In this document: positions 4,345-43,155 of the stretch, in pieces
How the letters are laid out: each line of letters starts with the position of its first letter
How positions within the stretch are numbered: the stretch's first letter is position 1
Origin: Paludibacteraceae bacterium
GTDB lineage: Bacteria; Bacteroidota; Bacteroidia; Bacteroidales; Paludibacteraceae
Direction: 5' to 3'
DNA: 64,000 bases
Assembly: GCA_017430235.1 (NCBI GenBank)
Contig: JAFRNH010000096.1
Coordinates: 16,955-80,954, forward strand
Notes under the pieces: model-generated
What the model saw: the letters and a program-made list of their open reading frames with translations, nothing else
Databases searched by the model: none
What the model was told of the DNA's origin: nothing
Program-made: the position numbers and the translations under genes

Positions 4345-5004
4345 ATGAAGAGAATCATCATTATCGACGGTGGACCGCGCAAGACGTTCAATACCGCATC
4401 TATGCTAAAGAAGTTTGCAGAAGGAGCGAACTCAGCAAGTGAAGAGATTGAAGTGAAGAGTTATCGTCTCTATGAAATCGACTACAAGGGTTGTATGTCG
4501 TGTATGGCCTGTAAAATCAAAGGGAAGGCGGTGAACATCTGTAAGTTTAAGGATGGCCTCACACCAATATTGAACGAAATAGCGGAAGCAGACGGACTTG
4601 TGCTTGGATCACCCAACTATTTCGGAGAAGTCACCGGACAAATGCGAGCTTTCTTAGAGCGTTTGGCATTCCCTTGGCTTTCGTACAACGATTATAGCAA
4701 CACTGCGCCCAAACGTATGTCCGTAGTGCTAATTGAAACACAGAACGGCACCCAAGAGTACAACAACTGCAACGGCTACGGTTCGATGGAATATTGCATC
4801 ACCCAGGCACTCGGAGAACCCGAAAAACTGATTGCCTACAACACCTATCAAGTTAAGAACTACGCCAATTATGAGTTAGCAGGATTCTCGGAAGAGGAGA
4901 AGCGGAAGTATCGCGACGAGCATTGGGAAGACGACTTGCAACAAGCCTACGACGCAGGACGACGGATGGCGGGGAAGATAATTGAACCAATTACCAACAA
5001 ATGA
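4345..5004 (+). CDS. Flavodoxin-fold NAD(P)H-dependent FMN oxidoreductase with cysteine motif
   Basis: 219 residues. It begins with a flavodoxin-like beta strand and phosphate-binding loop (MKRIIIIDGGPRKTFNTASM). It carries KGCMSCMACK with cysteines at 50, 53, 56 and 66. The stretch GLVLGSPNYFGEVTGQMRAFLER (split over residues 88-110) is typical of NADPH-dependent FMN reductases and iron-sulfur flavoproteins. The spacing CX2CX2CX9C is longer than the compact cluster motif of classical Isf proteins, so presence of an Fe-S cluster is uncertain. It is divergent from gpx-ohrR and shares the palindromic operator region, suggesting a role in reducing quinones or electrophiles under redox stress. 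Substrate unknown. Confidence 0.8.
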   Translation: MKRIIIIDGGPRKTFNTASMLKKFAEGANSASEEIEVKSYRLYEIDYKGCMSCMACKIKGKAVNICKFKDGLTPILNEIAEADGLVLGSPNYFGEVTGQMRAFLERLAFPWLSYNDYSNTAPKRMSVVLIETQNGTQEYNNCNGYGSMEYCITQALGEPEKLIAYNTYQVKNYANYELAGFSEEEKRKYRDEHWEDDLQQAYDAGRRMAGKIIEPITNK

Positions 5005-5011
5005 AAAATCC

Positions 5012-5058
5012 GAGGACAAGAATGAGCAAATTTGTTTGCTTTTTTTTGATTTGTCCTC
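5012..5058 (+). terminator. Nested hairpin terminator
   Basis: An inner hairpin AGCAAA-TTTG-TTTGCT (5025-5040) is followed by seven T. An outer pair GAGGACAA (5012-5019) and TTGTCCTC (5051-5058) encloses it. It lies just after the flavoprotein stop at 5004. Confidence 0.75.
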
Positions 5059-5075
5059 ATCTTAACATATATTTG
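5045..5075 (+). promoter_or_regulatory. Promoter of the TonB-dependent receptor gene
   Basis: TTTG (5045-5048), 19 bases, TATATTTG (5068-5075). This is a near-ideal Bacteroidetes promoter 31 bases before the ATG at 5107. It overlaps the 3' arm of the upstream terminator. Confidence 0.7.
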
Positions 5076-5106
5076 TAGTTATTATTGAAACGAACTAGCA
5101 TAAAAG

Positions 5107-7554
5107 ATGAGACATTTCAAACTAATATATGTACTAACAGCACTTTCATGGATATGTTGCGTGAGCACCGCAAACGCCCAAAAAACGCAAGAGCCAAAAG
5201 AGCAGGAGAAAGAGCAGGAGAAAGAGAAAGTCGAACTAAAGACATGGACAGAGATCCATAACGGAAATGAGGTTACCCTAAGAGAGGTAACGATGGACAC
5301 ACTAGCAGCATGGCTAAATAGCGACGATACAATACCCGACGACCCCATCATGCACTTTCTACGTGAGTTTGTCGTCATCGCCAACACTCGTGATAGCAAA
5401 TCATTGCAGGAGCAATCTGTTGCCTTCACCTCTTTTGGTGCCGATCAACTGGAATTGAGAGAGATAAAATCCATCAAAGATGTCAGCGGAAACACACCAA
5501 ACTTCTTCATGCCTGATTTCGGTTCCAGTATGACATCCGCCATATTCGTGAGAGGATTCGGTTCTATCGTTGGAGTTCCCGTTGTTGGTATGAACGTGGA
5601 TAACGTTCCTACGCTCAACAAGAATGCATTCGATGCCGACCTGTTTGATGTAGAGCGTATTGAAATGCTACGTGGACCACAAGGAACATCCACCGGTCGT
5701 AATTCCATGATGGGTGTATTGAACGTCTATACACTATCACCACTCAACTATCAAGGAACACGTGTTTCGGCCGACTATTCCACAGCCAACACCGTTAAAC
5801 TAAAAGCATCTACCTACCAAAAGCCTAAAGACAATTTCGGTTTTTCAGTGGCTGCCAACTATAAACATACAGATGGATTCTTTATCAATGAATACAAAGG
5901 TTCCCCATGCGATCCTCATAATAGTTTCAGCGCCAGAGGTCGTATCATCTGGTCGCCAAAAGAGAAATTCACTGTCGACAACGTTGTTTCCGGAGGTTAC
6001 TTGGCAGAAGGTGGTTTCCCATACGCATTCACCGACCGCTACGATCAGACGCAACCCATTGCATACGATGGAGATAACAGATACAAAAGGGCTACCATAT
6101 CAGACGGATTGGTGATTCAATATCGATACGAAAAATTCATTTTCAACAGTATCACAGGTTACCAATTTCTATCCGACAAGATGTTTTTGGACCCTGACTA
6201 TATGACAAAATCCATTATAACAAGAGATGAGAAGCAAAAAGAACACGCCTTCTCCCACGAATTCAACTTCCGTTCCACCATCAACCAAGAACGAAAATGG
6301 AACTGGAAAAACGGATTGTGGGTCTTTTACAAACATAACAAAACCGAGTCACCCATCACCTACCATCAAGACGGGCTCGACTATCTGTTCGGTAGCACGG
6401 TGAACAAAGGTATACAATCAGCACATCCGAATAGCAAACTGACCATTAGTGGCAATGAACTAACAGTCACCAACGACTTTGAAATACCAACCATCGGAAC
6501 TGCCGTTTATCACCAATCTGAGTTCACTCTGAAAAAATGGGACTTGGTGGCAGGTCTCCGTTTAGATTACGAGCACTCCAGACTTGATTACCTGAGTCAA
6601 AATGATATGAGTTACATAGTCTCCCTCTGCATGAACAAAGAGAAAGACATCAAAACTCATTTCTATGGATCACAAACATTATCAGATTTCCAAGTCTTAC
6701 CTAAAATTTCCGCTCAATACAATTTCAACCAATATTGCAACCTATACGCATACGCAGCAAGAGGTCACAAGGCTGGTGGTTTCAACACCCTATTGTTCTC
6801 AGATATCATACAGAACAAAATCATGACCAACATCTTCAACGAGGTAGATGTGAATGTGAAAGAAACTGGGTTGCCTATCTTCGACTATACCCAAAACATT
6901 GCATACGAGTCTGAGCATAGCTGGGACTTCGAGTTTGGTGGTCACTTTCTCTCACCCGAGAAGGTGTTTAACATAGATTTCTCTCTCTTCTACATTCTTT
7001 GTAGAGACCAACAAATACTAACCTTCCCATCAGGTAAGAATTCAGGAAGTATGATTATCAATGCCGACAAAAGCCGAAGCGTTGGTGGAGAGTTCTCCAT
7101 CAACTATCAGCACACTAGCAAAGAGACGCATAACACATTCAACCTGGAAGGATCATACGGTTACTCCAATGCTAAATTCATAGAGTTCAAACACGACGAT
7201 GTTGATTACAGCGGTAATAGAATACCTTTTGCTCCTGCCAACACAATCGGATTGGACATTCAGTATAAGATTAAGTTCCACGAGCCATGGATCACTCATC
7301 TGATTCTTGCAACAGAATGGAAAGGTTACGGAAAGGTGTATTGGAACGAAGACAATCTATACAGCCAACAATTCTATTCATTGTTCAACGCATCCATCAC
7401 ATGGGAGTGGAACAAACTGAACGTAAAAGGATGGTCTAAAAACTTGGCAGACAAAGAATACAACACATATTCGTTCACCAATTTCGGCAATCACTATTGT
7501 CAGAAGGGAAAACCAAGACAAATTGGAATCACAGTCAGCTACAAATTTGAATAA
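5107..7554 (+). CDS. TonB-dependent outer-membrane receptor
   Basis: 815 residues with a signal peptide ending ANA-Q near residue 25. The plug domain (about 90-215) includes IFVRGFGS and IEMLRGPQGTSTGRNSMMGVLNV, the usual plug sequence before the barrel. The barrel runs to an aromatic C-terminus (ITVSYKFE). It imports ligands too large for porins using TonB energy; the ligand is not evident. No SusD-like lipoprotein follows and no carboxypeptidase-regulatory domain precedes the plug, so a siderophore, cofactor or metal-chelate role is more likely than glycans. A charged KEQEKEQEKEK repeat (about 31-41) precedes the plug. Its neighbour is sufS-sufE, which hints at iron or sulfur supply. Confidence 0.9.
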   Translation: MRHFKLIYVLTALSWICCVSTANAQKTQEPKEQEKEQEKEKVELKTWTEIHNGNEVTLREVTMDTLAAWLNSDDTIPDDPIMHFLREFVVIANTRDSKSLQEQSVAFTSFGADQLELREIKSIKDVSGNTPNFFMPDFGSSMTSAIFVRGFGSIVGVPVVGMNVDNVPTLNKNAFDADLFDVERIEMLRGPQGTSTGRNSMMGVLNVYTLSPLNYQGTRVSADYSTANTVKLKASTYQKPKDNFGFSVAANYKHTDGFFINEYKGSPCDPHNSFSARGRIIWSPKEKFTVDNVVSGGYLAEGGFPYAFTDRYDQTQPIAYDGDNRYKRATISDGLVIQYRYEKFIFNSITGYQFLSDKMFLDPDYMTKSIITRDEKQKEHAFSHEFNFRSTINQERKWNWKNGLWVFYKHNKTESPITYHQDGLDYLFGSTVNKGIQSAHPNSKLTISGNELTVTNDFEIPTIGTAVYHQSEFTLKKWDLVAGLRLDYEHSRLDYLSQNDMSYIVSLCMNKEKDIKTHFYGSQTLSDFQVLPKISAQYNFNQYCNLYAYAARGHKAGGFNTLLFSDIIQNKIMTNIFNEVDVNVKETGLPIFDYTQNIAYESEHSWDFEFGGHFLSPEKVFNIDFSLFYILCRDQQILTFPSGKNSGSMIINADKSRSVGGEFSINYQHTSKETHNTFNLEGSYGYSNAKFIEFKHDDVDYSGNRIPFAPANTIGLDIQYKIKFHEPWITHLILATEWKGYGKVYWNEDNLYSQQFYSLFNASITWEWNKLNVKGWSKNLADKEYNTYSFTNFGNHYCQKGKPRQIGITVSYKFE

Positions 7555-7581
7555 AATGCCATTCCTTCAATTGTTTTTTTT

Positions 7582-7589
7582 TAATTTTG
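7582..7589 (+). promoter_or_regulatory. Possible -7 box upstream of sufS
   Basis: TAATTTTG fits TAnnTTTG and lies 24 bases before the ATG. No good -33 element is seen, so sufS may also be read from the receptor gene upstream. Confidence 0.35.
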
Positions 7590-7613
7590 CATGCGTAAAA
7601 AAACAAGTATAAA

Positions 7614-8837
7614 ATGACTATCAATATAGAAAAAATCAGAGAGGATTTCCCCATTCTGAAAAAAGAAGTATACGGAAAGCCTCTCGTATATTTTGACAAT
7701 GCAGCTACCACACAGAAACCAACTTGCGTGGTCGATACGATTGTCAAAGGATATTACGACTGCAACGCCAACATTCACAGAGGTGTTCACTTTCTAAGCC
7801 AACAAGCAACCGAAGCGCATGAAGCGGCCCGCAAAACCGTTCAACAATTCATCCATGCGCAACATGCCCATGAAATTGTATTCACAAGAGGTACGACAGA
7901 AGCCATCAACTTGGTGGCCCACTCTTTTGGTATCAGTCAGTGCTCAGATGGTGATGAAATCATCATCACACAGATGGAGCACCACTCCAATATTGTTCCT
8001 TGGCAACTACTGCAATCCATTCGCAACATTCGTCTTCGCATAATTCCATTTGACGAGAAAGGTGTTTTGCAAGTGAATCAACTGGAGAGTCTCATCAATG
8101 AGAAGACAAAACTGATTGCCGTATCGCATGTCTCAAATGCCCTAGGCACCACCAACCCAATCAAAGAGATTGTTCGTATTGCGCACAATCATGACATCCC
8201 TGTCTTAGTGGATGGTGCGCAATCAACTCCACATATATCCATCGACGTACAAGATTTAGACGTTGATTTCTTCGCTTTTTCAGGTCATAAGATCTATGGA
8301 CCTACAGGCATTGGCGTACTTTATGGAAAGGAGAAATGGTTGGAGAAGATTCCTCCCTACCAAGGTGGCGGTGAGATGATTCACAAGGTGACATTTGAGA
8401 AGACAACATTCAATGAGCTACCGTTCAAATTTGAAGCTGGCACACCCGACTACATCGGTTCCACCGCATTGGCTACAGCCCTCGACTATGTGTCAAACAT
8501 CGGCATAGAGAACATTGCCCAACATGAACACGAACTGCTTCACTATGCCACAGAAAAGCTAAGTCAAATCGACGGAATGCGATTCATCGGCGAAGCAGCG
8601 TCAAAGAGTGGCCTGATCTCTTTCTTGGTTGGCAACATTCATCCATATGACTTGGGTACGATTCTCGACAAGTTGGGAATCGCCGTTCGCACGGGTCATC
8701 ATTGTGCGGAGCCCGTCATGCAAGCATTCAACATTGAGGGAACAGTCAGGGCATCATTTGCAATGTATAACACAAAAGAAGAAATTGATATTTTGGTAGC
8801 AGGTATCGAACGTGCCACCAAGATGTTCAGACGATAA
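7614..8837 (+). CDS. sufS: Cysteine desulfurase SufS
   Basis: 407 residues, the usual SufS length. The PLP-binding lysine is in SGHKIYGP (K226). The active-site cysteine lies in RTGHHCAEP (C364), the group II (SufS/CsdA) signature in which the cysteine loop is short. It removes sulfur from L-cysteine as a persulfide for Fe-S cluster assembly in the cytoplasm. sufE follows after 11 bases, so the pair is co-transcribed and SufE accepts the sulfur. The scaffold genes sufBCD are not in this window. Confidence 0.96.
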   Translation: MTINIEKIREDFPILKKEVYGKPLVYFDNAATTQKPTCVVDTIVKGYYDCNANIHRGVHFLSQQATEAHEAARKTVQQFIHAQHAHEIVFTRGTTEAINLVAHSFGISQCSDGDEIIITQMEHHSNIVPWQLLQSIRNIRLRIIPFDEKGVLQVNQLESLINEKTKLIAVSHVSNALGTTNPIKEIVRIAHNHDIPVLVDGAQSTPHISIDVQDLDVDFFAFSGHKIYGPTGIGVLYGKEKWLEKIPPYQGGGEMIHKVTFEKTTFNELPFKFEAGTPDYIGSTALATALDYVSNIGIENIAQHEHELLHYATEKLSQIDGMRFIGEAASKSGLISFLVGNIHPYDLGTILDKLGIAVRTGHHCAEPVMQAFNIEGTVRASFAMYNTKEEIDILVAGIERATKMFRR

Positions 8838-34418: not shown

Positions 34419-34775
34419 TTAAGCAGATTTCTTCTTTAATTGTTCACAATATCTTGTGCACTGCGCACAGACATCATACCCAAGAAGTGAACCTAATATA
34501 AAATCCTTCTCAGGAGAGAGTTGTGACAAGGAACCATCAATGAGCAACTTAATCACCTGTATGCACTCGCATTTTCCAAAGAAGAGATTGATCGTATTTT
34601 TACCAGCCGGTAAAATATAATGAGCAATCCCCTGCTCTTTCAATCGATTTACGGCATACGACTCATATTTCTGACTCATAGTGTACAGAACCATTTGTCG
34701 TACCCCTTTTTTGTACTCATAGATGTGATTGAAGAAAACCTTCAACTCTAATATGTTCTCTTTTGACAGTTCCAT
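34419..34775 (-). CDS. DUF2023 family protein, flavodoxin partner
   Basis: 118 residues matching the DUF2023 pattern: an N-terminal helix ELKVFFNHIYEYKKGVRQMV, a central NLFFGKCECI, and a cysteine-rich C-terminus CAQCTRYCEQL. In Bacteroidetes this family is nearly always encoded next to flavodoxin, as here (18 bases downstream). A role in handling or reducing flavodoxin is plausible but unproven. The cysteines could bind metal. Confidence 0.82.
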   Translation of the reverse strand: MELSKENILELKVFFNHIYEYKKGVRQMVLYTMSQKYESYAVNRLKEQGIAHYILPAGKNTINLFFGKCECIQVIKLLIDGSLSQLSPEKDFILGSLLGYDVCAQCTRYCEQLKKKSA

Positions 34776-34793: not shown

Positions 34794-35294
34794 TCAGATA
34801 GATGGACGTATAGACTCAATCCATGCATTGATTCTATCGTCTGTTTTGTAATCCTCGTTTACTTCATCCAATGCCAGTCCGATAAACTCATTGTCGACAA
34901 CGGCAACAGATGAGGAGAAATTGTAATCTGCTGTGGATACTCGTCCCACGAAATTACATCCTTTATCCTTGATTCCTTCGTAAATCAATCCCATCGCATC
35001 ACAGAATGTATCGCAGAAAGAACTGGAATCACCACATCCGAAAAACGCAACTGTTTTACCAGTCAAATCAACATTTTTCAAAGCGTCCAATCCATCATAC
35101 CAATCATCTTGCAACTCCCCACTTCCCCATGTGGAAGATCCTAATAGCAACACATCATAATTAGCTGCCATAGATGAAATCTTATCAGGTGTGTTAACAT
35201 CTGATGATGCTATTTGCAACTTCTCTGCAATCTTCTCTGCAATGGATTCGCACACGCCTGTAGAAGAACCATAAAATATTCCGATTTTTTTCAT
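34794..35294 (-). CDS. fldA: Flavodoxin
   Basis: 166 residues from the ATG at 35294 (MKKIGIFYGSSTGVCESIAE); an upstream extension is not conserved. The FMN phosphate loop is SSTGVCES, and the isoalloxazine loops are around STWGSGELQDDWYD and CGDSSSFCDTFCDAMG. A long-chain flavodoxin that replaces ferredoxin in electron transfer, usually when iron is scarce. It is first in the pair with DUF2023 and lies next to the heme/imelysin operon, consistent with an iron-related neighbourhood. Confidence 0.92.
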   Translation of the reverse strand: MKKIGIFYGSSTGVCESIAEKIAEKLQIASSDVNTPDKISSMAANYDVLLLGSSTWGSGELQDDWYDGLDALKNVDLTGKTVAFFGCGDSSSFCDTFCDAMGLIYEGIKDKGCNFVGRVSTADYNFSSSVAVVDNEFIGLALDEVNEDYKTDDRINAWIESIRPSI

Positions 35295-35510: not shown

Positions 35511-36650
35511 CTAGAAATTAGCGTATTGCGATTGGTTGTTTTCTATAATGGCGATGCCCTCCATTTCGATCAACCACCCAGGACGACACACTGGCGCATG
35601 AACAATGATGAATGGTGTATGAGGGAATCGATCCTCATACATCTTCTTTATCGTTTCATAATCAGCATAGTCTCGCAGATAGACCACAATGTGCGCAAAA
35701 TCATCCATCGTGCCACCTGCTTCGCTTAACAGGGCTTCACTATTCTCCCACATGCGCAATGTCTGCTTGACAACGTCACCCACATGCATGATCTCTCCTT
35801 TGTTATTGATACTTGCAGTGCCAGATAAGAAGAGGTGCTTTCGATCGCCATAACTAACGGCGGTGCCTCGTTCAAAGGTGACACCATACTCATACGTAGG
35901 GTTCAAATGCGTCAAGGCATGTAAGTACTGTACCTGTTCCTTTTGCAATCCCTTTACATTGTATGAATCCAAAAGAATGATGGAAGAGGATGCTGCTGTT
36001 CTTCCTTCAATACCTGTACTAGCAATATAATGCGTATCCTGCTTTAATCCCAAAAGATTGAAGGCACTCTTTCGTCCATTCACCATATCGGTATAATTGA
36101 CATCAATATTCTGAACATAAAACCACGTACGGATGCAGTTGTCACGAGTAGTCATCTCCATCTCTTTCAATAGGTTTTCTTGTGAGGTGAGGAGTTCCAC
36201 ACTCTGAAGGTATGAATTATATTCTTTTCCGATTTCAGACAACCACAAATGGGAATATCCATTGTGATGGAAAAGAGACAATTGTTTCTCATCCTGCGTC
36301 ATTTCTGTAGCGAAATAAGCCAAGACCGACATTTTACTGCCATCCAAAGGTGGCTGTTGAACAATCGAAAGCGTTGCGCCACGCACTACCTCTTTCATCA
36401 GTTCGGCAGTATATGCCTGCTGATTACTTGCATCACTCAACAATACACGGCAAAACATAAGCGTATATTCTGAATGCCTTTCACAAAATTTTTCTATTCC
36501 ATTCTTAAGCAGATTGGCTTGTTGTTCGAAAGTACCAAAGAGTTCTGATTGAAAAAGCACATGCATCTCTTTGCTTCCATGTTGAGGAGCAAAATATGCG
36601 ATTCGAGCTCTGGTACTCTCCTCTTTTTCAATGTTGAAATCTATTTTCAT
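35511..36650 (-). CDS. Tandem RidA/YjgF-fold protein, chorismatase-like
   Basis: 379 residues. Two RidA-like halves: a degenerate one (about 1-150) and a better conserved one (about 180-379). Features such as RTWFYVQNIDVNY, ASTGIEGR, and LFLSGTASINNKGE followed by HVGDVVKQTLRMWEN resemble the chorismatase group (FkbO/Hyg5/XanB2), which splits chorismate to hydroxybenzoates or dihydro forms. Single-domain RidA enamine deaminases are about 130 residues, so this is not a plain RidA. It overlaps the cytochrome lipoprotein gene by 4 bases, the last of six genes. If it makes a catechol-like product, this would fit a metal-binding role of the operon; that is speculation. Confidence 0.65.
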   Translation of the reverse strand: MKIDFNIEKEESTRARIAYFAPQHGSKEMHVLFQSELFGTFEQQANLLKNGIEKFCERHSEYTLMFCRVLLSDASNQQAYTAELMKEVVRGATLSIVQQPPLDGSKMSVLAYFATEMTQDEKQLSLFHHNGYSHLWLSEIGKEYNSYLQSVELLTSQENLLKEMEMTTRDNCIRTWFYVQNIDVNYTDMVNGRKSAFNLLGLKQDTHYIASTGIEGRTAASSSIILLDSYNVKGLQKEQVQYLHALTHLNPTYEYGVTFERGTAVSYGDRKHLFLSGTASINNKGEIMHVGDVVKQTLRMWENSEALLSEAGGTMDDFAHIVVYLRDYADYETIKKMYEDRFPHTPFIIVHAPVCRPGWLIEMEGIAIIENNQSQYANF

Positions 36651-37360
36651 TTGTCTATGTTTTTAATCCATTCTTTTAATAAGTTCAAATCTTCCGTCTC
36701 ACTATTGAAACTAACATTTGTATGATTATACCTCACATTCTCTGCATTTCCCTCCAATACATCCAAAATGAAACTATTAGAGGTCATGCCGGGTGCCACC
36801 AAAACTTTATCAGATTGTTTCGTGGAAGGAACATTCACGAGGGCATCGTAACTTTTACCCTCCGTCAGGAAAAGTCCTGCAGCGGCATGCGCACTTCCTC
36901 CATGACAGTTCGTACAATTAGAGAAGACCTGCGCCTGCACGCGTTCGTAGGCAAGCAAATCGATATCTTGTGTTCCCAACTCTATGAGTCGGTCATTTCT
37001 CTCTGATGGTTGAATGGTGTGAGTCATCAGGTTTACCACATTTCTTTTACTCTTATTGACAATAGCGATTGTGACCAATTGACACGACTCTGGTATGTCT
37101 GTCATGGTCAGGTGTAAGGTATCTCCCTCTACTTGTCTGCTGATACCTTTCGATATCTCTGAATATTCGCTGTCATTCTGATATGCAGCCAATACCACAT
37201 GATAATCAGAAGGCCATGTTGACGTATGCTTAAAGGTCAACGCAATCTTGCAAGTCAGCCCACCGGAGTTACTCTTATCCACAGGATAGATATCCCCGCT
37301 ATCACATGCGCTCAATAACAAAAGCGTAAAAGGAAGAATCAGAATTTGTAAATATCTCAT
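36647..37360 (-). CDS. Mono-heme c-type cytochrome lipoprotein
   Basis: 237 residues. The lipobox LLSAC gives a lipidated Cys19. An N-terminal beta-rich domain (about 35-135) is followed by a heme site CTNCH (C149, C152, H153) in FSNCTNCHGGSAHAA. A methionine or histidine further on (for example VAPGMTSNSFI) could be the second axial ligand. Cytochrome maturation enzymes would be needed and are not in the window. It is flanked by porin (12 bases) and the RidA-like gene (overlap of 4). Probably passes electrons on the periplasmic or outer face. Confidence 0.78.
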   Translation of the reverse strand: MRYLQILILPFTLLLLSACDSGDIYPVDKSNSGGLTCKIALTFKHTSTWPSDYHVVLAAYQNDSEYSEISKGISRQVEGDTLHLTMTDIPESCQLVTIAIVNKSKRNVVNLMTHTIQPSERNDRLIELGTQDIDLLAYERVQAQVFSNCTNCHGGSAHAAAGLFLTEGKSYDALVNVPSTKQSDKVLVAPGMTSNSFILDVLEGNAENVRYNHTNVSFNSETEDLNLLKEWIKNIDK

Positions 37361-37372
37361 AATAGAACCTGG

Positions 37373-38608
37373 TTAAAAAGTGTATTGTAGTAAGGCGATT
37401 GCTGTATGAATGGCAAGATTGGTGTCATCATTATCTCTATCCAACTGTGTTTCATGACCATATTTGCCTAAGTATTGATACATCACTTGAAGTTTCAAAT
37501 TGCATTTAACAAAATGATAGTTGAGACAAGCGGCAGGAGAGTTCAAATAACCCTCTTTATCCAATCCATTTCGATTGAACCAATCATAGCGAAGGGCTCC
37601 CTGCAACTTCGGTGTGAAGAAGTAACCTGCTTGTGCATAACCACCGATCAGATGGAATTCGTCCGCCAACTGCATTCTGTTTGTCCAGTTCATTCTCAAG
37701 TAATAAAATTCACCAGAAAGGAAGAAGCGGCGATACAACCAAGAGGCTTCGAAACCACAGCGGAAGTCGTTAGAACTCTCATCTTCTGCCTCCACATTGT
37801 AATTGGCCGAAACAGCAAACAATAGTTTATTGTTTTCCAAGTCTGATGGGGATCCCTGATGGGAAGGCATCACACCCAAAGGCATATAAGCCAAACGTGT
37901 AGCATATAGGAGCGATGGCAACCACTTATGGTCGTCACTCATAGTTTTATTAGCCGAGAGAGAGCCCCCGTTTCCATTAAACACAGCGGCTTGATATTGA
38001 AATTTATCTTTTACTACTCCATGAAACTGTAATCCAAGGTCGATACCCGTTCCAACGGTAGGATTGGTAGCATTCAGGCTCATATCCACATTGGCGGTGG
38101 AAGTCAGTGACAATGGAAGGTTAGGAAACATGGTTTCGCCCAACGTCACCTGATAAGCTTGCAAGTAAGGCACTTTGAATTTACCTGCACGGATACGAAA
38201 GGCATCGTTCAGATTGATATCAAACCATGCCTGTTGTAAGAGGTTGGAACCACTCTTAGCAGCATTCAAAGCGAAATTAAATGTAATGATTTTGAAAGCT
38301 CTTCCCGAGAATCCCAAAAGGGCATTAGGAATAGAGAATCCACTATTAGCAATGTTGTCTTGATCAGCAAGGTTCAACCCCTCATCATCATAATAGTTAA
38401 AATTACCTGCAGTCTGCACCAAGATGTATGGTTTGAAAAGGAAATCACCTGCTTTAGTTTGGATGGATAATCCTTTTTTCTCATCCAGACTGACAATGTT
38501 ACTCTCTAAATATTTATCATCAATCTCTTTGTATTCAACATCGGCTCCCTGGGTTGTCACATTCAACAAAAGGAGGCTATAAGCAACGAACGAAATTACT
38601 TTTTTCAT
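37373..38608 (-). CDS. Outer-membrane porin, phosphate-selective porin O/P-like
   Basis: 411 residues. A signal peptide (MKKVISFVAYSLLLLNVTTQG) is followed by a beta-barrel with alternating hydrophobic strands and a C-terminal aromatic residue (ALLQYTF). Motifs such as FRIRAGKFKVPYLQAYQV and ETMFPNLPLSL are typical of the OprP/OprO-like family. It would let small solutes cross the outer membrane. It lies between the di-heme gene (30 bases) and the mono-heme lipoprotein gene (12 bases). A second, unrelated-looking porin begins the operon. Confidence 0.78.
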   Translation of the reverse strand: MKKVISFVAYSLLLLNVTTQGADVEYKEIDDKYLESNIVSLDEKKGLSIQTKAGDFLFKPYILVQTAGNFNYYDDEGLNLADQDNIANSGFSIPNALLGFSGRAFKIITFNFALNAAKSGSNLLQQAWFDINLNDAFRIRAGKFKVPYLQAYQVTLGETMFPNLPLSLTSTANVDMSLNATNPTVGTGIDLGLQFHGVVKDKFQYQAAVFNGNGGSLSANKTMSDDHKWLPSLLYATRLAYMPLGVMPSHQGSPSDLENNKLLFAVSANYNVEAEDESSNDFRCGFEASWLYRRFFLSGEFYYLRMNWTNRMQLADEFHLIGGYAQAGYFFTPKLQGALRYDWFNRNGLDKEGYLNSPAACLNYHFVKCNLKLQVMYQYLGKYGHETQLDRDNDDTNLAIHTAIALLQYTF

Positions 38609-38638
38609 ATTACAAATACTAATTAATTATAATTCACC

Positions 38639-40033
38639 TTATAATGTTTCCAAGAAGACAATCAGTGCATCACGGTCTTCTTTACTTAATTTTTTGAAAA
38701 GTTCTTTTGATACGGCACCTTCACCGCCATGCCATAAGATGGCCTCTTTCAGATTCCTTGCTCTTCCATCATGAAGGAATTGGGTATGTCCATTGACGGT
38801 CTCTTGAAGTCCGATACCCCACAATGGAGTGGTACGCCATTCGTTTCCGAAGGCAAGTCCCGATTTAAGATGGTCGTCCAATTCAGGCCCCATATCATGT
38901 ATAAGGAAATCTGAGTAAGGATGGATGGTCTGTCCACCCAACCATGGCAAAGATGTACCATTCAACAAGGTGGAACCTGTTGCTTGTGTGTGAAGAGTTG
39001 GCAAGTGACACAAATGGCACTTAGCCGCATAAAAGGCCTTCTCACCCTTCTTCACGATTGCATTGTTGACATATCTTCTGGCAGGTACGCCCAAGCATTG
39101 CATATACAAGTCTACATCTTCCATATCGCGAGTGGAGACTTCCAATCCGTGATAGAGAGCAGGACTCTGCGATTGCCCGGCACACACCTCCTCAGGGTAA
39201 CGAGAATTGGTCATACCCATATCACTGGAATAACCCAACTCAACCGTCAAATCTGCATGTTGTGCTTTATTTCCAGACAATCCAATTTGATAGACACCCT
39301 TTTCAGTTATGTAATTAAGTCTTCCACTGATACCATATTCGGGATAGTTGCTTTGAGCCTCCACTTTAAGCAACTCTTGTCGGTCGAGACTCATGATTTG
39401 TCCCATCCCAACGTGTCGGAGTGGAATACGCACCGATATATAGAGATCCTCTGGACTGATGCTATCAGCATACCATTCCGTAATCTCATAGTGTGGTTTT
39501 TGCAATGAATACTTCTCACCGTCAGGAAACGAATAAGACTCTTCCGTATAAGTAACTTTCAGTTTACCCTCGGCCTGAGATCCATAGATAGTTTGGTCGT
39601 GCAAGACCCTACCATATTGTCTGAAAAAGGCTCCATTCTTACGAATGATATAGACCAGCATGGATGAGAATCCATAATTACCACTACCACCCTGTGAAAA
39701 GAGCGAAGAGGGTGTTCTTCCTGCATTTTTATGACAACTACCACATGAATATCCAGCATAGACAGGACCTAAACCAGACTCTTCATTGTAAGGATTGTCA
39801 TATAGCAAGTCTCCATTATTAAAACGTTCCAAAAGAGCCCCCGTCACCCATGGTGCAGGTGTGTCATACGCCTTACTGGAAGAGAGAAACGAGGTGGCGG
39901 TGCCCGCGGATAACTCATTAAACTGAGCTATCTTACCATTAGGTTTTACAATCTCATTGTAACCAACCGTATCATCCTCACAAGAGAGACATAGTAAAAG
40001 GAGAACACCGATAAATGGAGAATAAATCTTCAT
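38639..40033 (-). CDS. Di-heme oxidoreductase-like lipoprotein (DUF1111 family)
   Basis: 464 residues. Lipobox LCLSC with Cys18 followed by acidic EDD. Two heme c sites: CGSCH (C97, C100, H101) and CHLCH (C339, C342, H343). The C-terminus contains TTPLWGIGLQETVNGHTQFLH split around residues 410-430, and HDGRARNLKEAILWHGGE. This matches di-heme 'thiol oxidoreductase' DUF1111 proteins related to MauG/bacterial cytochrome c peroxidases. In Pseudomonas aeruginosa a similar gene sits next to an imelysin gene. It probably performs redox chemistry in the periplasm; the substrate is unknown. Confidence 0.85.
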   Translation of the reverse strand: MKIYSPFIGVLLLLCLSCEDDTVGYNEIVKPNGKIAQFNELSAGTATSFLSSSKAYDTPAPWVTGALLERFNNGDLLYDNPYNEESGLGPVYAGYSCGSCHKNAGRTPSSLFSQGGSGNYGFSSMLVYIIRKNGAFFRQYGRVLHDQTIYGSQAEGKLKVTYTEESYSFPDGEKYSLQKPHYEITEWYADSISPEDLYISVRIPLRHVGMGQIMSLDRQELLKVEAQSNYPEYGISGRLNYITEKGVYQIGLSGNKAQHADLTVELGYSSDMGMTNSRYPEEVCAGQSQSPALYHGLEVSTRDMEDVDLYMQCLGVPARRYVNNAIVKKGEKAFYAAKCHLCHLPTLHTQATGSTLLNGTSLPWLGGQTIHPYSDFLIHDMGPELDDHLKSGLAFGNEWRTTPLWGIGLQETVNGHTQFLHDGRARNLKEAILWHGGEGAVSKELFKKLSKEDRDALIVFLETL

Positions 40034-40120
40034 ACCAATAATTTTTTACACAGAAGTTCGGAAGAGCAAAATTTTGCCCTTCCGAACTTATTTTGTTTAA
40101 CTTTAAAATAAATATTCGAC

Positions 40121-41257
40121 TTACTCGATGACTTCCTTAACTTTCTCCAATACGTCTGTCAATTCAGCCAACTTCTCCATCGCATCTTTGATTTCTGTTG
40201 AAGCATTCAAGTTGTTTCTGAATGGAGCAGGGATGGCATCAACCGCATTATATGCATCTTTGATTGCCTTACGGATTTGCTCATCCAAATTTTTATTCTT
40301 TCCTGCAACAACACCAGAGATACTGGATGCACTACCAGTCTTATCCAAATCACCTATTTTATCAGAAAGAGTTCCTAAGTAAGAGTGTTGGATACTAAGA
40401 ATATTGTGCTTGTAGTCATCCAAAGAGTTCCATGAGTACCATGATTCAACCTCCTCCACTTGTTTCGTGTTGAATGGTCCTCCGATCTTTTGCTCACCCA
40501 CCTCACCACTGATGTCTGTGCAACCATCAATGATTTGTCCAATAACATCAGCCTGAGTTTTGTATGCTTGATCAAACATATTCGCATTTTTGAATCTTGC
40601 GCCAAAACCATCATTAGCAGCATCTGGTTCCAACTCTTCCACTCTCTCTTTGTCGGCACTGCTTAAACTCTTATCACCATGCCAATAATACCACAACAAG
40701 AAGGCATCATCACTAATACCTGTAGCAACTGCAACCATATAGTTCTTTTGTCTCTCTGTGATATCGGAAGCTTTACGAGCCTTACCGTTCTCAAACAACA
40801 AATACTCTAATGTGTGGAAACCACGAACTGTGCTACCCAAAGCTTCTGGATCAAACTCAATCGAGCTGTTTAAGAAACTATTGATTTGCACCTTGTCGAG
40901 TGGCCATGAATCCAACGACGGATCCAAACCGTATGTGGCAGCAGGGCCAAACAAGAATGCCTCACTCTCCTCCCATGGCTCACGCGCAGCACGCCACGCA
41001 TCACATGCAGCTTGCAAGTCGCTATCAGTGCCACTCTCTGTGAATGCCTCAACAGCTTCCAAAAGAGCGGATGTCTTATCCTTCATATCACCATATGTAG
41101 GGATAACCACCTTGTCCACATAATTATTAATCACCTCAGTGTAAGCCACTGATGAAGAATCGTCATTCAAGACTTCTTCTTTTTTCTCATCATCACAAGA
41201 TGAGAAAAACATCAAGGACGCTAATAAACCTCCGAAGATTAAATTTTTCTTATTCAT
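40121..41257 (-). CDS. Imelysin-like (M75 family) lipoprotein
   Basis: 378 residues. Lipobox FSSC with Cys21 followed by DDEKKEE. The imelysin GxHxxE motif is present as GFHTLE (G146 to E151), with the upstream AWRAAREPWEESEAFLFGP typical of the family. Imelysin-like proteins (ICMP, IrpA, EfeO domain) are linked with iron acquisition, and most are not proven proteases. The second helical repeat is about 200-370. It is encoded 39 bases after a porin gene and 87 before the di-heme gene. An iron-binding role at the cell surface is the best inference. Confidence 0.88.
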   Translation of the reverse strand: MNKKNLIFGGLLASLMFFSSCDDEKKEEVLNDDSSSVAYTEVINNYVDKVVIPTYGDMKDKTSALLEAVEAFTESGTDSDLQAACDAWRAAREPWEESEAFLFGPAATYGLDPSLDSWPLDKVQINSFLNSSIEFDPEALGSTVRGFHTLEYLLFENGKARKASDITERQKNYMVAVATGISDDAFLLWYYWHGDKSLSSADKERVEELEPDAANDGFGARFKNANMFDQAYKTQADVIGQIIDGCTDISGEVGEQKIGGPFNTKQVEEVESWYSWNSLDDYKHNILSIQHSYLGTLSDKIGDLDKTGSASSISGVVAGKNKNLDEQIRKAIKDAYNAVDAIPAPFRNNLNASTEIKDAMEKLAELTDVLEKVKEVIE

Positions 41258-41296
41258 ATCGTCTTTATTTAATTTGTTTTGTTTTCTGTTTGTTAA

Positions 41297-42649
41297 TTAT
41301 CGTCTAGTATACCATGCCATGTAACCAACACCCACGGAGAAGGTGTTCTCGCCATTAAAGTTGCCATGATCAATCCACCGGTGACTATAATCACTCTTTA
41401 TCACCAAATTAGGAAGAGGCTTATAATTAAGTCCCACGGTTAGAATATCTCTCTTGAAACGAGGGTCGTAGACCACCGCCCCCGCTGTCGTTTGCATGGA
41501 ATTGTAATATTCGTAGCTGATAAACGGAGTAAGACTCAATCGCTCACAAATCAGATTACCGAAATCATACCCCATCTCTGCATACCAATCCAATGCGCTT
41601 TCTGCCACTTGATCACGAGGGAATATGGAAATCTTACCCGACTTTGGCATTGTCAAATTAAGTTTCGACAACGCCTCGCTATCACCTACCCTTCCATATA
41701 AGAAATTGGCACGTCCCGTGAATCGCTTGTTTTGTACTTGTACATCAGCACTAACCACGAAGACGGGAACGTCAATATCTTTCATCTTCTCCTTCTTCGA
41801 AGAGTTGCCTGTCGTTTTAGGTGCATAATAAGTGGAAACACCCAATCGAGTGTTTTTTATGAATCTAAAATCCATGCGAGCCGCCATAGCCGGATTGGTC
41901 ATGGTGCTTGTTTCAAACATAGATTGTCTTCCTTTTCTGATGAAATTCGGACGAGAGAAGAAATTAGGATCCAACCCGTTTACACACATAATATTGTAAT
42001 CGAACTTGCGAACAGTACCAAAGAGAGCAATACCATTCTCATGCCATGTGGAAGGAATCAAGGTAGATTCACCTTCAGAACGCGTAGTTGCAAAGAAAAG
42101 AAGCGGTTCATGATGCGTATTGGTTAATCCGACAGGAACTATGATATGACCAAACTGCAAATTCAACCATGGTGCGAACACCTTTGTTAGATGAAATTGT
42201 TCAAGAGCCACCTCTCCGCCTTTTTCAACCTCCATTTCGTATTCTCCAGCCTCTTCATATTCATATTCTATGCCACTACCTGTACCCCCATACTCAAATT
42301 CCACTTCAGAACCTAATATCCAGGTAGGGGAAAGTTTAAAATCGAGTGCAAACACAAATCTTGGAATGGATATCTCCGAACGATTGTCCTTCAGTGCACC
42401 ATTCTCATAAAAACGATTCGCACCATAATCAAAATGTTGATACAACATCTCACCATATCCACCTAATCGAAAACGCCAATCACCATAGTCATCCCGATTG
42501 TACCGGCGATGATGTTTGGCTTGCTTGACTTCAGAAACCGTTGTCGTATCAACCGATTGAACGTCTCCTTCCTCAGCCATAGCCACATTACCTATCACTA
42601 AGAAACTTAGTGCGATAGATAGTAATTTTGTAATTCGTTTCATAACCAA
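41297..42649 (-). CDS. Outer-membrane porin-like protein, first gene of the heme/imelysin operon
   Basis: 450 residues. The signal peptide ends at AMA near residue 25, followed by a low-complexity charged segment (KQAKHHRRYNRDDYGDWRFR) that could bind metal through its histidines. The barrel has long predicted strands and a glycine/glutamate-rich loop near 125-150. C-terminus ends in aromatic and basic residues (YMAWYTRR). It resembles OprO/OprP-like or other Bacteroidetes porins but shares little with the second porin. A promoter with palindromes lies directly upstream. Confidence 0.72.
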   Translation of the reverse strand: MVMKRITKLLSIALSFLVIGNVAMAEEGDVQSVDTTTVSEVKQAKHHRRYNRDDYGDWRFRLGGYGEMLYQHFDYGANRFYENGALKDNRSEISIPRFVFALDFKLSPTWILGSEVEFEYGGTGSGIEYEYEEAGEYEMEVEKGGEVALEQFHLTKVFAPWLNLQFGHIIVPVGLTNTHHEPLLFFATTRSEGESTLIPSTWHENGIALFGTVRKFDYNIMCVNGLDPNFFSRPNFIRKGRQSMFETSTMTNPAMAARMDFRFIKNTRLGVSTYYAPKTTGNSSKKEKMKDIDVPVFVVSADVQVQNKRFTGRANFLYGRVGDSEALSKLNLTMPKSGKISIFPRDQVAESALDWYAEMGYDFGNLICERLSLTPFISYEYYNSMQTTAGAVVYDPRFKRDILTVGLNYKPLPNLVIKSDYSHRWIDHGNFNGENTFSVGVGYMAWYTRR

Positions 42650-42655
42650 AATATT

Positions 42656-42717
42656 TAGGTGCCTAATAACACCAATTTAATGGTGCAAAGTTCTTTTGAA
42701 TCCACAAGTATGGCAAT
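42656..42717 (-). promoter_or_regulatory. Promoter and two candidate operators of the heme/imelysin operon
   Basis: On the minus strand: TTG (42717-42715), 20 bases, GAACTTTG (42694-42687; one mismatch to TAnnTTTG). Directly after the -7 box is the palindrome CACCATTAAATTGGTG (42686-42671), and 3 bases beyond it TTAGGCACCTAA (42667-42656), whose arms resemble DtxR/IdeR-type half sites. Repressor sites at and after the start point would fit control by a metal or redox regulator; the regulator is not identified. Confidence 0.6.
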
Positions 42718-43155
42718 CATAATAATTAGGTAAAAGGAGAAATATCGATTACTATATATGGCTATTGGATGAAAAACAGAGTAACTATCAAAAAAACAAG
42801 AGTTGCGAAGAATGTTTTTGAAACCTTCTTCGCAATGGAATCTTCACAGACAGCGCTCTTGCCTTATGTGGTACTGTTCTTAGTAAAACGACATGTTTTA
42901 TTATTTATATTTTATTATGGCTTGTATTTTATGTCTGAGCATATCGTTTCACGTATATATCTGAACAAAATTGTTAACTTTAATTTTGAACATTGCAAAG
43001 ATAGAACGAGTTAAAGATATGAGTAATACCCAAATATAGTTATTCTGTTTTGGATGTATCCTTATAATTTGTAATAATCCTAACAGAGAACGAATTAAGT
43101 AATGAGAATTCACTTCATATCTGCTTTACAGCTATGTTTTTTGTTATAAAATTTA
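42718..43155. other. Intergenic region with a 10-base-pair hairpin
   Basis: About 440 bases, AT-rich. A perfect inverted repeat TTGCGAAGAA (42803-42812) / TTCTTCGCAA (42826-42835) with a 13-base loop is the only clear structure. An 81-codon plus frame (42769-43014) covers it but shows no signal peptide or family features. I see no convincing gene here. Confidence 0.45.

What the first reader, a model, noticed from the sequence alone, without database searches (positions are those of the whole stretch)
35511..42717. Six-gene envelope operon: two porins, imelysin, di-heme and mono-heme lipoproteins, and a chorismatase-like protein
Seen: six co-directional genes with gaps of 39, 87, 30, 12 and -4 bases, three lipoproteins, three heme c sites in two proteins (CGSCH, CHLCH, CTNCH), a GxHxxE imelysin motif, and one promoter upstream. 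Known: imelysin-like proteins are linked to iron uptake, and in Pseudomonas aeruginosa an imelysin gene neighbours a DUF1111 di-heme gene. Inferred: the operon is a surface redox-coupled metal-acquisition system. Two porins and a tandem RidA/chorismatase-like enzyme make this version distinct; the enzyme could supply or modify a catechol-like ligand. The adjacent fldA-DUF2023 pair, typical of iron limitation, supports this.
Basis: partly seen in the sequence, partly recalled or inferred. Interest (0 to 1): 0.8.

Follow-up and report, generated by a model that had tools for sequence, protein, structure and literature searches.

The report
Iron-starvation surface cytochrome and imelysin operon
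A set of six genes, kept in the same order across many gut bacteria of the order Bacteroidales, looks like a surface system for capturing and reducing iron during iron starvation; it carries an unexpected aromatic-compound enzyme and, just upstream, a probable iron-controlled small RNA.

Summary
The six-gene block is real, with the stated gaps. It is not a local oddity: 58 of 60 testable named loci (among the best 80 of 450 relatives) keep the order omp1-imelysin-DHOR-porin-cytochrome-RidT; 45 of 64 also have the cytochrome c maturase CcsBA beside it. By order and annotation it matches Bacteroides thetaiotaomicron BT2473-BT2482, published as 63- to 324-fold up without iron, so the iron link is right but known. 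New here: (1) the 'RidA/chorismatase-like' protein keeps the chorismatase catalytic Glu and the three residues of the 3-hydroxybenzoate-forming type in 96-97 of 97 sequences and lacks the RidA arginine; (2) a 20-bp palindromic operator, 21 nt before the -7 box, precedes the operon and, in some genomes, feoAB and fldA; (3) FeoAB, fldA, hemerythrin and CcsBA genes recur beside it; (4) a structured small RNA with its own operator lies just upstream, found in 13 of 16 genomes of the genus; in 2 of 7 genomes searched a ferredoxin start matches its loop exactly over 10 nt. Most likely function: surface capture and reduction of iron to feed FeoAB. Electron source, redox direction, RidT product and RNA expression are unproven.

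The parts
41297..42643 (-). omp1: outer-membrane beta-barrel (distant porin O/P / BBP2 kin), first gene
   Evidence: weak BBP2; the Bacteroides xylanisolvens homologue matches PF07396 at E 7.4e-07; present in 66 of 67 testable named loci
40121..41257 (-). imelysin (M75) lipoprotein, canonical topology, GxHxxE near residue 146 of 378
   Evidence: PF09375 E 1.2e-56; PDB 3n8u E 3.4e-62 and 4ecg E 5.5e-52; topology by motif position
38639..40033 (-). DHOR (DUF1111, 'thiol oxidoreductase') di-haem lipoprotein; haem sites at residues 97-101 and 339-343
   Evidence: PF06537; two CxxCH in 107 of 109 homologous ORFs, some contigs counted twice
37373..38608 (-). porin O/P family outer-membrane channel
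   Evidence: PF07396 E 3.1e-33
36647..37360 (-). mono-haem cytochrome c lipoprotein; haem site at residues 149-153
   Evidence: no family match; exactly one CxxCH in 97 of 97 ORFs, some contigs counted twice; Cys, Cys, His of the haem site invariant in 41 of 41 aligned
35511..36650 (-). RidT: chorismatase-like enzyme without a signal peptide by eye, RidA-type C-terminal domain
   Evidence: PF01042; TIGR04444 E 1.9e-14 but 53.7 bits against a cut-off of 325; catalytic residues
42715..42734 (-). proximal operator of iron-box type (P2), 21 nt before GAACTTTG at 42693-42686 (one mismatch to TAnnTTTG)
   Evidence: PWM 12.7, p 0.006; spacing
42747..42766 (-). second, tandem operator copy 32 bp upstream of the first
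   Evidence: PWM 9.5; 32 bp is the commonest distance between two sites, 15 of 47
43025..43044 (-). distal operator (P1), best site of the 64-kb window, 21 nt before TATCTTTG at 43003-42996
   Evidence: 21.8 bits; maxima of 5 shuffled windows 9.9-16.5; spacing
42793..42995 (-). candidate iron-controlled small RNA, about 203 nt, ending in a strong hairpin; a neighbour, not a member, of the operon
   Evidence: no Rfam match at E up to 1
34794..35294 (-). fldA, flavodoxin, downstream of the operon (216 bp gap)
   Evidence: own operator not significant, p 0.14
34419..34775 (-). DUF2023 partner of fldA
   Evidence: PF09633 E 8.4e-42

Best explanation
This is the Bacteroidales form of the imelysin-DUF1111 iron operon. 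When iron is scarce a Fur-type repressor leaves the tandem operators and the genes are strongly transcribed. The imelysin, the di-haem DHOR and the mono-haem cytochrome are exported as lipoproteins, probably to the outer face of the outer membrane. The imelysin binds iron; the cytochromes move electrons and most likely reduce Fe(III) to Fe(II); the two porin-type barrels let iron or its ligand pass; FeoAB in the inner membrane takes up the Fe(II); CcsBA (beside the operon in 45 of 64 relatives, elsewhere in this genome) attaches the haems. The last gene is a chorismatase-type enzyme predicted to make 3-hydroxybenzoate (or a close aromatic) from chorismate, which could act as iron ligand, shuttle or signal. 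Shown by computation: gene content, order, conservation, haem sites, acid-rich lipoprotein starts, operator, recurrent neighbours, catalytic residues. Shown by others in a relative: iron-starvation induction, and the imelysin in culture supernatant. Inferred: surface location here, Fur as the binding protein, reduction rather than oxidation, feeding FeoAB, the product and role of RidT.
For: Order conserved in 58 of 60 testable named loci. BT2473-82 up 62.7-323.7-fold without iron and up in colitis (PMC10434189, passages). Operator: at most 3 mismatches in 33 of 84 upstream regions against 0.3 in shuffles (partly circular); window p 0.006 and own FeoAB 0 of 1000 shuffles with a matrix trained without this genus; of 20 site stretches read in four other genomes, two lie before FeoAB and two before fldA-DUF2023. 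FeoAB follows RidT on the same strand within about 330 bp in G002, G005, G012 and G148; in this genome FeoAB follows CcsBA. Hemerythrin gene within 3 kb downstream, same strand, in 15 of 64 loci. At least two acidic residues just after the lipobox Cys: imelysin 68 of 70, DHOR 54 of 59, cytochrome 53 of 55 with a lipobox found, out of 76, 80 and 74. BT_2479 was found in a coculture supernatant and its mutant kept EspB cleavage (PMC6282197, passage). B. fragilis needs FeoAB for iron released from haem (PMC6460266, abstract). RidT residues.
Against: No electron donor from the inner membrane is encoded in the operon. CcsBA-FeoAB linkage also occurs in G003 and G013, which lack DHOR, so that link is not specific to the operon. 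FeoAB is next to the operon in only 3 of 64 named loci. EfeUOB models allow or favour the opposite, oxidative direction (PMC9174327, passages). Hemerythrin neighbours fit nitrosative or oxidative stress as well. The DHOR protein and profile have no PDB match, so its chemistry cannot be read from a structure. The window's own fldA has no significant operator. Several other good operator sites lie before genes without an evident iron link.
Confidence: 0.55

Rival explanations
1. Stress defence: DHOR is a c-type peroxidase and, with the second cytochrome, removes peroxide or reactive nitrogen at the surface during inflammation; iron control reflects the host setting, where iron is withheld.
For: DHOR is named a putative peroxidase in Pfam; a hemerythrin-domain gene and a LuxR-type regulator lie beside many copies; induction in colitis.
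Against: Induction 63- to 324-fold by iron depletion in culture (PMC10434189); imelysin and porins are not detoxifying parts; the operator is shared with feoAB and fldA in other genomes.
Confidence: 0.2
2. Oxidative iron loading as proposed for EfeUOB: DHOR oxidises Fe(II) and the imelysin holds Fe(III).
For: Imelysin and EfeO are one superfamily (PMC3143127, passages); an Fe(II)/Fe(III) role for the M75 domain is proposed (PMC9174327, passages).
Against: No EfeU/Ftr1 permease or DyP peroxidase among the ten proteins at and beside the operon scanned (the rest of the genome was not searched); FeoAB takes Fe(II); oxygen is absent in an anaerobic gut.
Confidence: 0.1
3. Haem or haem-iron acquisition, the cytochromes being accidental to a porphyrin pathway.
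For: B. fragilis takes iron from haem through FeoAB (PMC6460266, abstract); hmu genes share the iron stimulon.
Against: No TonB-dependent receptor, HmuY or chelatase gene is part of the operon; neighbours in relatives were not searched systematically for them. Three covalent haem c sites consume haem.
Confidence: 0.1
4. RidT is a passenger: a general RidA-like detoxifying protein or a housekeeping chorismatase unrelated to the operon's function.
For: A paralogue with the same residues sits elsewhere near lptG and ribBA; no adjacent tailoring gene was seen.
Against: Present in 71 of 72 testable loci; the RidA arginine position is never Arg in 97 sequences; chorismatase residues conserved; the paralogue of this genome has no operator (p 0.77).
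Confidence: 0.25

Closest known systems
Bacteroides thetaiotaomicron BT2473-BT2482 iron-starvation locus (PMC10434189, passages read)
   Same: Peptidase M75, thiol oxidoreductase, porin, hypothetical genes and CcsA in the same order by annotation; strongly induced without iron
   Different: There CcsA is inside the locus and fimbrillin and HTH genes are counted to it; Bacteroides loci examined here carry a circularly permuted imelysin, the window a canonical one. Sequences of BT2473-82 were not compared; B. xylanisolvens (L141) stood in
Pseudomonas aeruginosa PA4370-PA4373 imelysin/DUF1111 operon (PMC3143127, passages read)
   Same: Imelysin with a DUF1111 di-haem protein, Fur regulated, envelope located
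   Different: Two imelysins; no porin pair, mono-haem lipoprotein or chorismatase in the passages read
EfeUOB/M ferrous-iron transporters (PMC3143127, PMC9174327, passages read)
   Same: M75/imelysin domain paired with a haem protein for iron
   Different: No EfeU or EfeB beside this operon; here barrels, c-type haems and FeoAB as the likely permease
Hyg5/FkbO/XanB2 chorismatases (PMC7170507, passages read; PDB 5ag3, 4bps)
   Same: C-terminal part by sequence, catalytic Glu and the three CH-II residues
   Different: 53.7 bits against a cut-off of 325; N-terminal third not aligned; envelope-iron setting instead of a natural-product cluster
RyhB-type iron-sparing small RNAs (recalled) and haemin-responsive small RNAs of Porphyromonas gingivalis (title only, in a reference list)
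   Same: Iron-box promoter, strong 3' hairpin, single-stranded conserved stretches, possible ferredoxin target
   Different: No Rfam match; no expression data; not compared with the P. gingivalis RNAs, whose paper is not held

Membership tests
Imelysin-DUF1111 iron operon | Imelysin-family gene (PF09375, GxHxxE) next to a DUF1111/DHOR gene (PF06537) | tested here: met
   imelysin present before DHOR in 69 of 70 testable named loci
Imelysin-DUF1111 iron operon | Iron (Fur-type) regulation | tested here: inconclusive
   Operator of the type found before feoAB and fldA. Expression shown only in a relative (PMC10434189); binding by Fur is inferred
EfeUOB transporter | EfeU/Ftr1 permease and DyP-type EfeB encoded alongside | tested here: not met
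   None among the ten proteins at and beside the operon scanned with Pfam and NCBIfam; the whole genome was not searched
Chorismatase, CH-II (Hyg5) type | Active-site Glu (Hyg5 E334) | tested here: met
   E362 in 97 of 97 RidT sequences; residue role from PMC7170507 (passage)
Chorismatase, CH-II (Hyg5) type | Subfamily residues Gly, Gly, Cys (Nat-hyg5 164, 231, 318; Hyg5 173, 240, 327 by the offset of 9) | tested here: met
   G213 in 96 of 97, G277 and C355 in 97 of 97
Chorismatase, CH-II (Hyg5) type | NCBIfam TIGR04444 score at or above the curated cut-off | tested here: not met
   53.7 bits against 325; 43 of 43 members scanned match at E 0.001 or better. Hence filed as a chorismatase relative, not a member
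Chorismatase, CH-II (Hyg5) type | Converts chorismate to 3-hydroxybenzoate | not testable with these tools
   Needs an enzyme assay
RidA imine deaminase | Catalytic Arg of the C-terminal motif (E. coli R105, recalled) | tested here: not met
   The aligned position (349) is I, F, L, V or M in 97 of 97 (register from the alignment)
Surface-exposed Bacteroidetes lipoproteins | Acid-rich export signal after the lipobox Cys (recalled) | tested here: met
   68 of 70, 54 of 59 and 53 of 55 with a lipobox found by a heuristic; location itself not testable
Small regulatory RNA | Own promoter, conserved sequence and structure, strong 3' hairpin, no long reading frame | tested here: met
   the U tract after the hairpin is short in several relatives, and the terminator scan did not list this hairpin
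Small regulatory RNA | Expressed transcript of the predicted size | not testable with these tools
   No RNA data

The most novel reading that the evidence does not exclude
One operator type turns this locus into a complete iron-starvation switch: a surface imelysin-cytochrome system reduces iron for FeoAB with the help of an aromatic compound made by a new chorismatase subfamily, while an adjacent Bacteroidales small RNA blocks ferredoxin translation at its start codon and the neighbouring fldA supplies flavodoxin in its place.
Probability: 0.2. Interest if true: 0.88.

Novelty: new variant of a known kind. Interest (0 to 1): 0.62.

Why it matters
Bacteroidales are among the main gut bacteria and must survive when the host withholds iron. 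One of their strongly iron-starvation-induced loci has no mechanism assigned in any paper that my searches listed (open-licence papers only). A concrete model (surface reduction feeding FeoAB, with a chorismatase-made aromatic) is testable with single deletions. If the upstream RNA is real, it would be an iron-sparing regulator with a proposed target in this order; haemin-responsive small RNAs have been reported in Porphyromonas gingivalis (title seen), but the listings showed none with a ferredoxin target. It would help to explain the ferredoxin-to-flavodoxin exchange that is already documented.

Tried and rejected
Idea that the operon is lineage-specific: rejected. Idea that RidT is a plain RidA tandem: rejected on residues. 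Idea that CcsBA serves nitrite reductase here: NrfA not found in 16 of 16 genomes of the genus, but other c-type cytochromes were not excluded. PDB searches with the DHOR protein and profile found nothing; the cytochrome profile gave general cytochromes and a weak FoxE match (E 0.0019), a lead only. Phylum-wide searches (395 genomes, of which five besides our own are listed as same order): the cytochrome over its full length only in our genome and G670; RidT at E 1e-30 or better in our genome, G670, G717 and G553 of the order (the last two with stops in the frame) and in part in G362 and G401 outside it. So few Bacteroidales were sampled that this says little about frequency. Operator before own CcsBA (0.94), own RidT paralogue (0.77) and window fldA (0.14): not significant; of the seven same-genus or near-identical operon regions tested with the same matrix, one (L076) was not significant for its best site (0.18). 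Small-RNA target search: 67 seed matches in 7 genomes against 33 for the control, 57 distinct ones read; most are inside genes or not at starts; others at starts are a hexapeptide-repeat protein (3 genomes), an iron-sulfur carrier ATPase, rpoC, Csm2 and TssD, so ferredoxin is a chosen hit, not a tested one. Whole-RNA duplex energies did not single it out (1 of 56 and 6 of 32 background starts as low); loop-only energies did (0 of 56, 0 of 32), which follows from the selection. MAFFT misplaced the GCCATAAT motif in two rows of A4, so no covariation statistic is claimed; the covariance model used that alignment.
Full report
Check of the observation. The likely ATG of the first gene is at 42643, so the stretch up to 42717 is leader and promoter. 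Pfam names the imelysin, DHOR, porin O/P and a RidA-type C-terminal domain; the first barrel is only weakly matched and the cytochrome lipoprotein is matched by nothing in Pfam or NCBIfam up to E 0.1. The three CxxCH sites and the three lipoboxes are in the sequence.

Conservation. The window lies in a genome of 2.71 Mb in 111 contigs, 88 percent complete; the titles of the closest named records say Bacteroidales or Paludibacteraceae, several from horse faeces or ruminant gut. A search of one genome per species with a DHOR alignment found 450 relatives and kept the best 80. I mapped genes by blastp against labelled references. Counting only loci with enough flanking DNA: omp1 66 of 67, imelysin 69 of 70, porin 73 of 74, cytochrome 72 of 72, RidT 71 of 72, CcsBA 45 of 64; the whole ordered set in 58 of 60. 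The two misses are L113 (no RidT found) and L142, where the porin is there but overlaps DHOR too far for my counting rule. The named records include Bacteroides xylanisolvens, B. fluxus, Phocaeicola plebeius, Parabacteroides distasonis and Dysgonomonas. The 80 are the best matches, so the figure may fall for more distant relatives. In a family sample 87 of 300 genomes have a DHOR match at E 1e-20 or better, 39 of them at E 1e-180 or better; the operon is common but patchy.

Known part. PMC10434189 (passages read) reports for B. [quoted passage not shown] the text says 69.4) and also rises in colitis; fldA (BT0517) and DUF2023 (BT0516) rise 326- and 598-fold. Order and annotation match our operon, and B. 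xylanisolvens (L141) has omp1, M75, DHOR, porin, cytochrome, RidT, CcsBA in that order. I did not compare BT sequences. PMC3143127 (passages) describes the imelysin-DUF1111 link, the Fur-regulated P. aeruginosa operon and circularly permuted imelysins in Bacteroidales. PMC6282197 (passage) found BT_2479 in the supernatant of cocultures and saw no loss of the tested protease activity in its mutant; PMC13192842 (passages) uses its signal peptide to secrete cargo. My searches listed no paper that assigns a mechanism to this locus; the library holds open-licence papers only.

Two lineages of the operon. By the place of GxHxxE among 103 imelysin-like reading frames, 35 have it in the first two thirds, 67 near the C terminus and 1 lacks it; two of the 35 were called permuted by best hit, and some contigs are counted twice. 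On a DHOR tree of 95 rows (88 labelled) the labels need 4 changes against a mean of 21 in shuffles. The window and five rows from its genus (L074-L078) sit in the canonical clade; rows of G001, G009, G015 and G006 (as L152), also of the genus, and the near-identical L145 sit in the permuted clade with ruminant-gut Bacteroidales. So two deep versions of the operon occur within one genus, which points to replacement or transfer. Five rows inside the permuted clade read as canonical by the motif and may be a further rearrangement.

RidT. NCBIfam TIGR04444 (FkbO/Hyg5 chorismatase) matches residues 169-366 at E 1.9e-14, far below its cut-off, and matches 43 of 43 relatives scanned. PDB sequence search aligns it with 5ag3 (Hyg5) and 4bps (FkbO), beside many single-domain RidA proteins, one of which scores best. 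In 97 different RidT sequences (three short ones left out; ten rows come from loci without DHOR) C355, E362 and G277 never vary and G213 is Gly in 96; they align with Hyg5 C327, E334, G240 and G173. PMC7170507 (passages) gives E334 as the catalytic acid and the Gly, Gly, Cys set as typical of the 3-hydroxybenzoate-forming type. The position of the RidA arginine (recalled) is hydrophobic in all 97. I therefore predict a chorismatase-type enzyme, not an imine deaminase. Its product and its purpose here are unknown.

Operator. A search for exact palindromes upstream of omp1 in 84 loci gave TACCTA-N4-TAGGTA in 10. With AATACCTANNNNTAGGTATT, 33 of 84 regions have at most 3 mismatches against 0.3 expected, 58 at most 4 against 2.7; the motif was found in the same set, so this is partly circular. 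In 50 of 73 regions with a good site a -7 box follows after exactly 21 nt; in 19 none was found within 50 nt. In four genomes (B. xylanisolvens, Phocaeicola abscessus, a goat-abomasum MAG, Parabacteroides gordonii) sites with at most 2 mismatches number 5, 9, 12 and 5 against reversed controls of 1, 1, 1 and 2. Of 20 stretches fetched, sites lie just before FeoAB in two (L243, L248), before fldA-DUF2023 in two (L240, L244), before this operon in one (L247) and before genes that look like TonB-dependent receptors by eye (L238, L246), while others lie before genes without an evident iron link. A matrix trained without this genus scores the window's proximal site at p 0.006 and a site before the genome's own FeoAB at 0 of 1000 shuffles; own CcsBA (0.94), RidT paralogue (0.77) and window fldA (0.14) are not significant. 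I call it an iron-box operator; that Fur binds it is inferred.

Neighbours. FeoAB follows RidT on the same strand, 20 to about 330 bp away, in G002, G005, G012 and G148. In this genome the one CcsBA found is followed by a FeoA-FeoB fusion gene; the same pair occurs in G014, G003 and G013, of which the last two lack DHOR. In the named set, within 3 kb and counting eligible loci only: a hemerythrin-domain gene downstream on the same strand in 15 of 64, on the other strand in 5 of 64, upstream in 5 of 57; fldA upstream in 4 and DUF2023 in 6 of 57; FeoB downstream in 3 of 64.

A small RNA next door. The best operator of the 64-kb window is not the proximal one but lies at 43025-43044, again 21 nt before a -7 box, here a perfect one. 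The stretch 42780-42990 folds better than 200 of 200 shuffles (z -3.0) and ends in a long hairpin before the proximal operator. The pattern GCCATAATN{22,52}ACCACATAAGG occurs exactly once in 11 of 16 genomes of the genus and never in the reversed control. A covariance model built from 11 of these RNAs finds it in 13 of 16 genomes of the genus and one of another genus, 14 of 300 in the family sample. All 14 have an operator (10 bits or more) 21 nt before the -7 box. Folding z-scores are -2.2 to -5.7 in 11 of 11; the mean chance of being unpaired is 0.60-0.80 for ACCACAUAAGG and 0.70-0.98 for GCCAUAAU against 0.38-0.51 overall. Rfam has no match at E up to 1. The RNA stands before omp1 in the window, G014, G002, G007 and G008; in G003, where no DHOR was found, azlC, the RNA and nudC are next to each other, as if the operon with fldA-DUF2023 had been lost in one piece. 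The exposed AAGCCAUAAU is complementary, over 10 nt, to the start of a 54-aa ferredoxin with two 4Fe-4S motifs in this genome and in G002, two of seven genomes searched; the ferredoxin BT2414 falls 4.8-fold without iron in B. thetaiotaomicron (orthology with the 54-aa protein not tested). Because I searched for the seed and then chose the ferredoxin, this is a hypothesis.

Most likely working. Low iron frees both promoters. The surface lipoproteins bind and reduce iron, the barrels pass it and FeoAB imports it; the RNA, if real, lowers ferredoxin while fldA, whose counterparts are iron-starvation induced, replaces it. Steps shown: anatomy, conservation, operator, neighbours, residues. Steps inferred: location, redox direction, partner permease, product and role of RidT, RNA expression and target.

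Noticed in passing
window 42793-42995 (-), with operator 43025-43044: Candidate iron-controlled structured small RNA upstream of the operon, in 13 of 16 genomes of the genus, no Rfam match, with a 10-nt match to a ferredoxin start region in 2 of 7 genomes searched.
   Followed up: partly
L257 (G003): A relative in which no DHOR was found keeps azlC, the small RNA and nudC side by side, as if operon plus fldA-DUF2023 had been lost in one piece.
   Followed up: partly
L071 1292-5500 (G000 contig C13): CcsBA cytochrome c maturase gene directly before a FeoA-FeoB fusion gene; the pair also occurs in two relatives without a DHOR match.
   Followed up: partly
L039 6858-11354: Paralogue of RidT with the same catalytic residues, near ruvC, lptG and ribBA (names by eye), without a significant iron-box operator.
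   Followed up: partly
L096 14505-15822, L081, L106 and others: Hemerythrin-domain protein plus LuxR-type regulator right after RidT in many Parabacteroides; P. goldsteinii and P. gordonii repeat RidT plus this pair.
   Followed up: partly
L104 from 6311: An additional, longer imelysin-like reading frame (527 aa) without GxHxxE between omp1 and the usual imelysin.
   Followed up: no
window 41086-41105: The second-best operator-like site of the window (16.0 bits) lies inside the imelysin gene; not examined.
   Followed up: no
window 4345-8837: TonB-dependent receptor-like gene (5107-7554) between an FMN-reductase-like gene and a cysteine desulfurase-like gene (names by eye).
   Followed up: no
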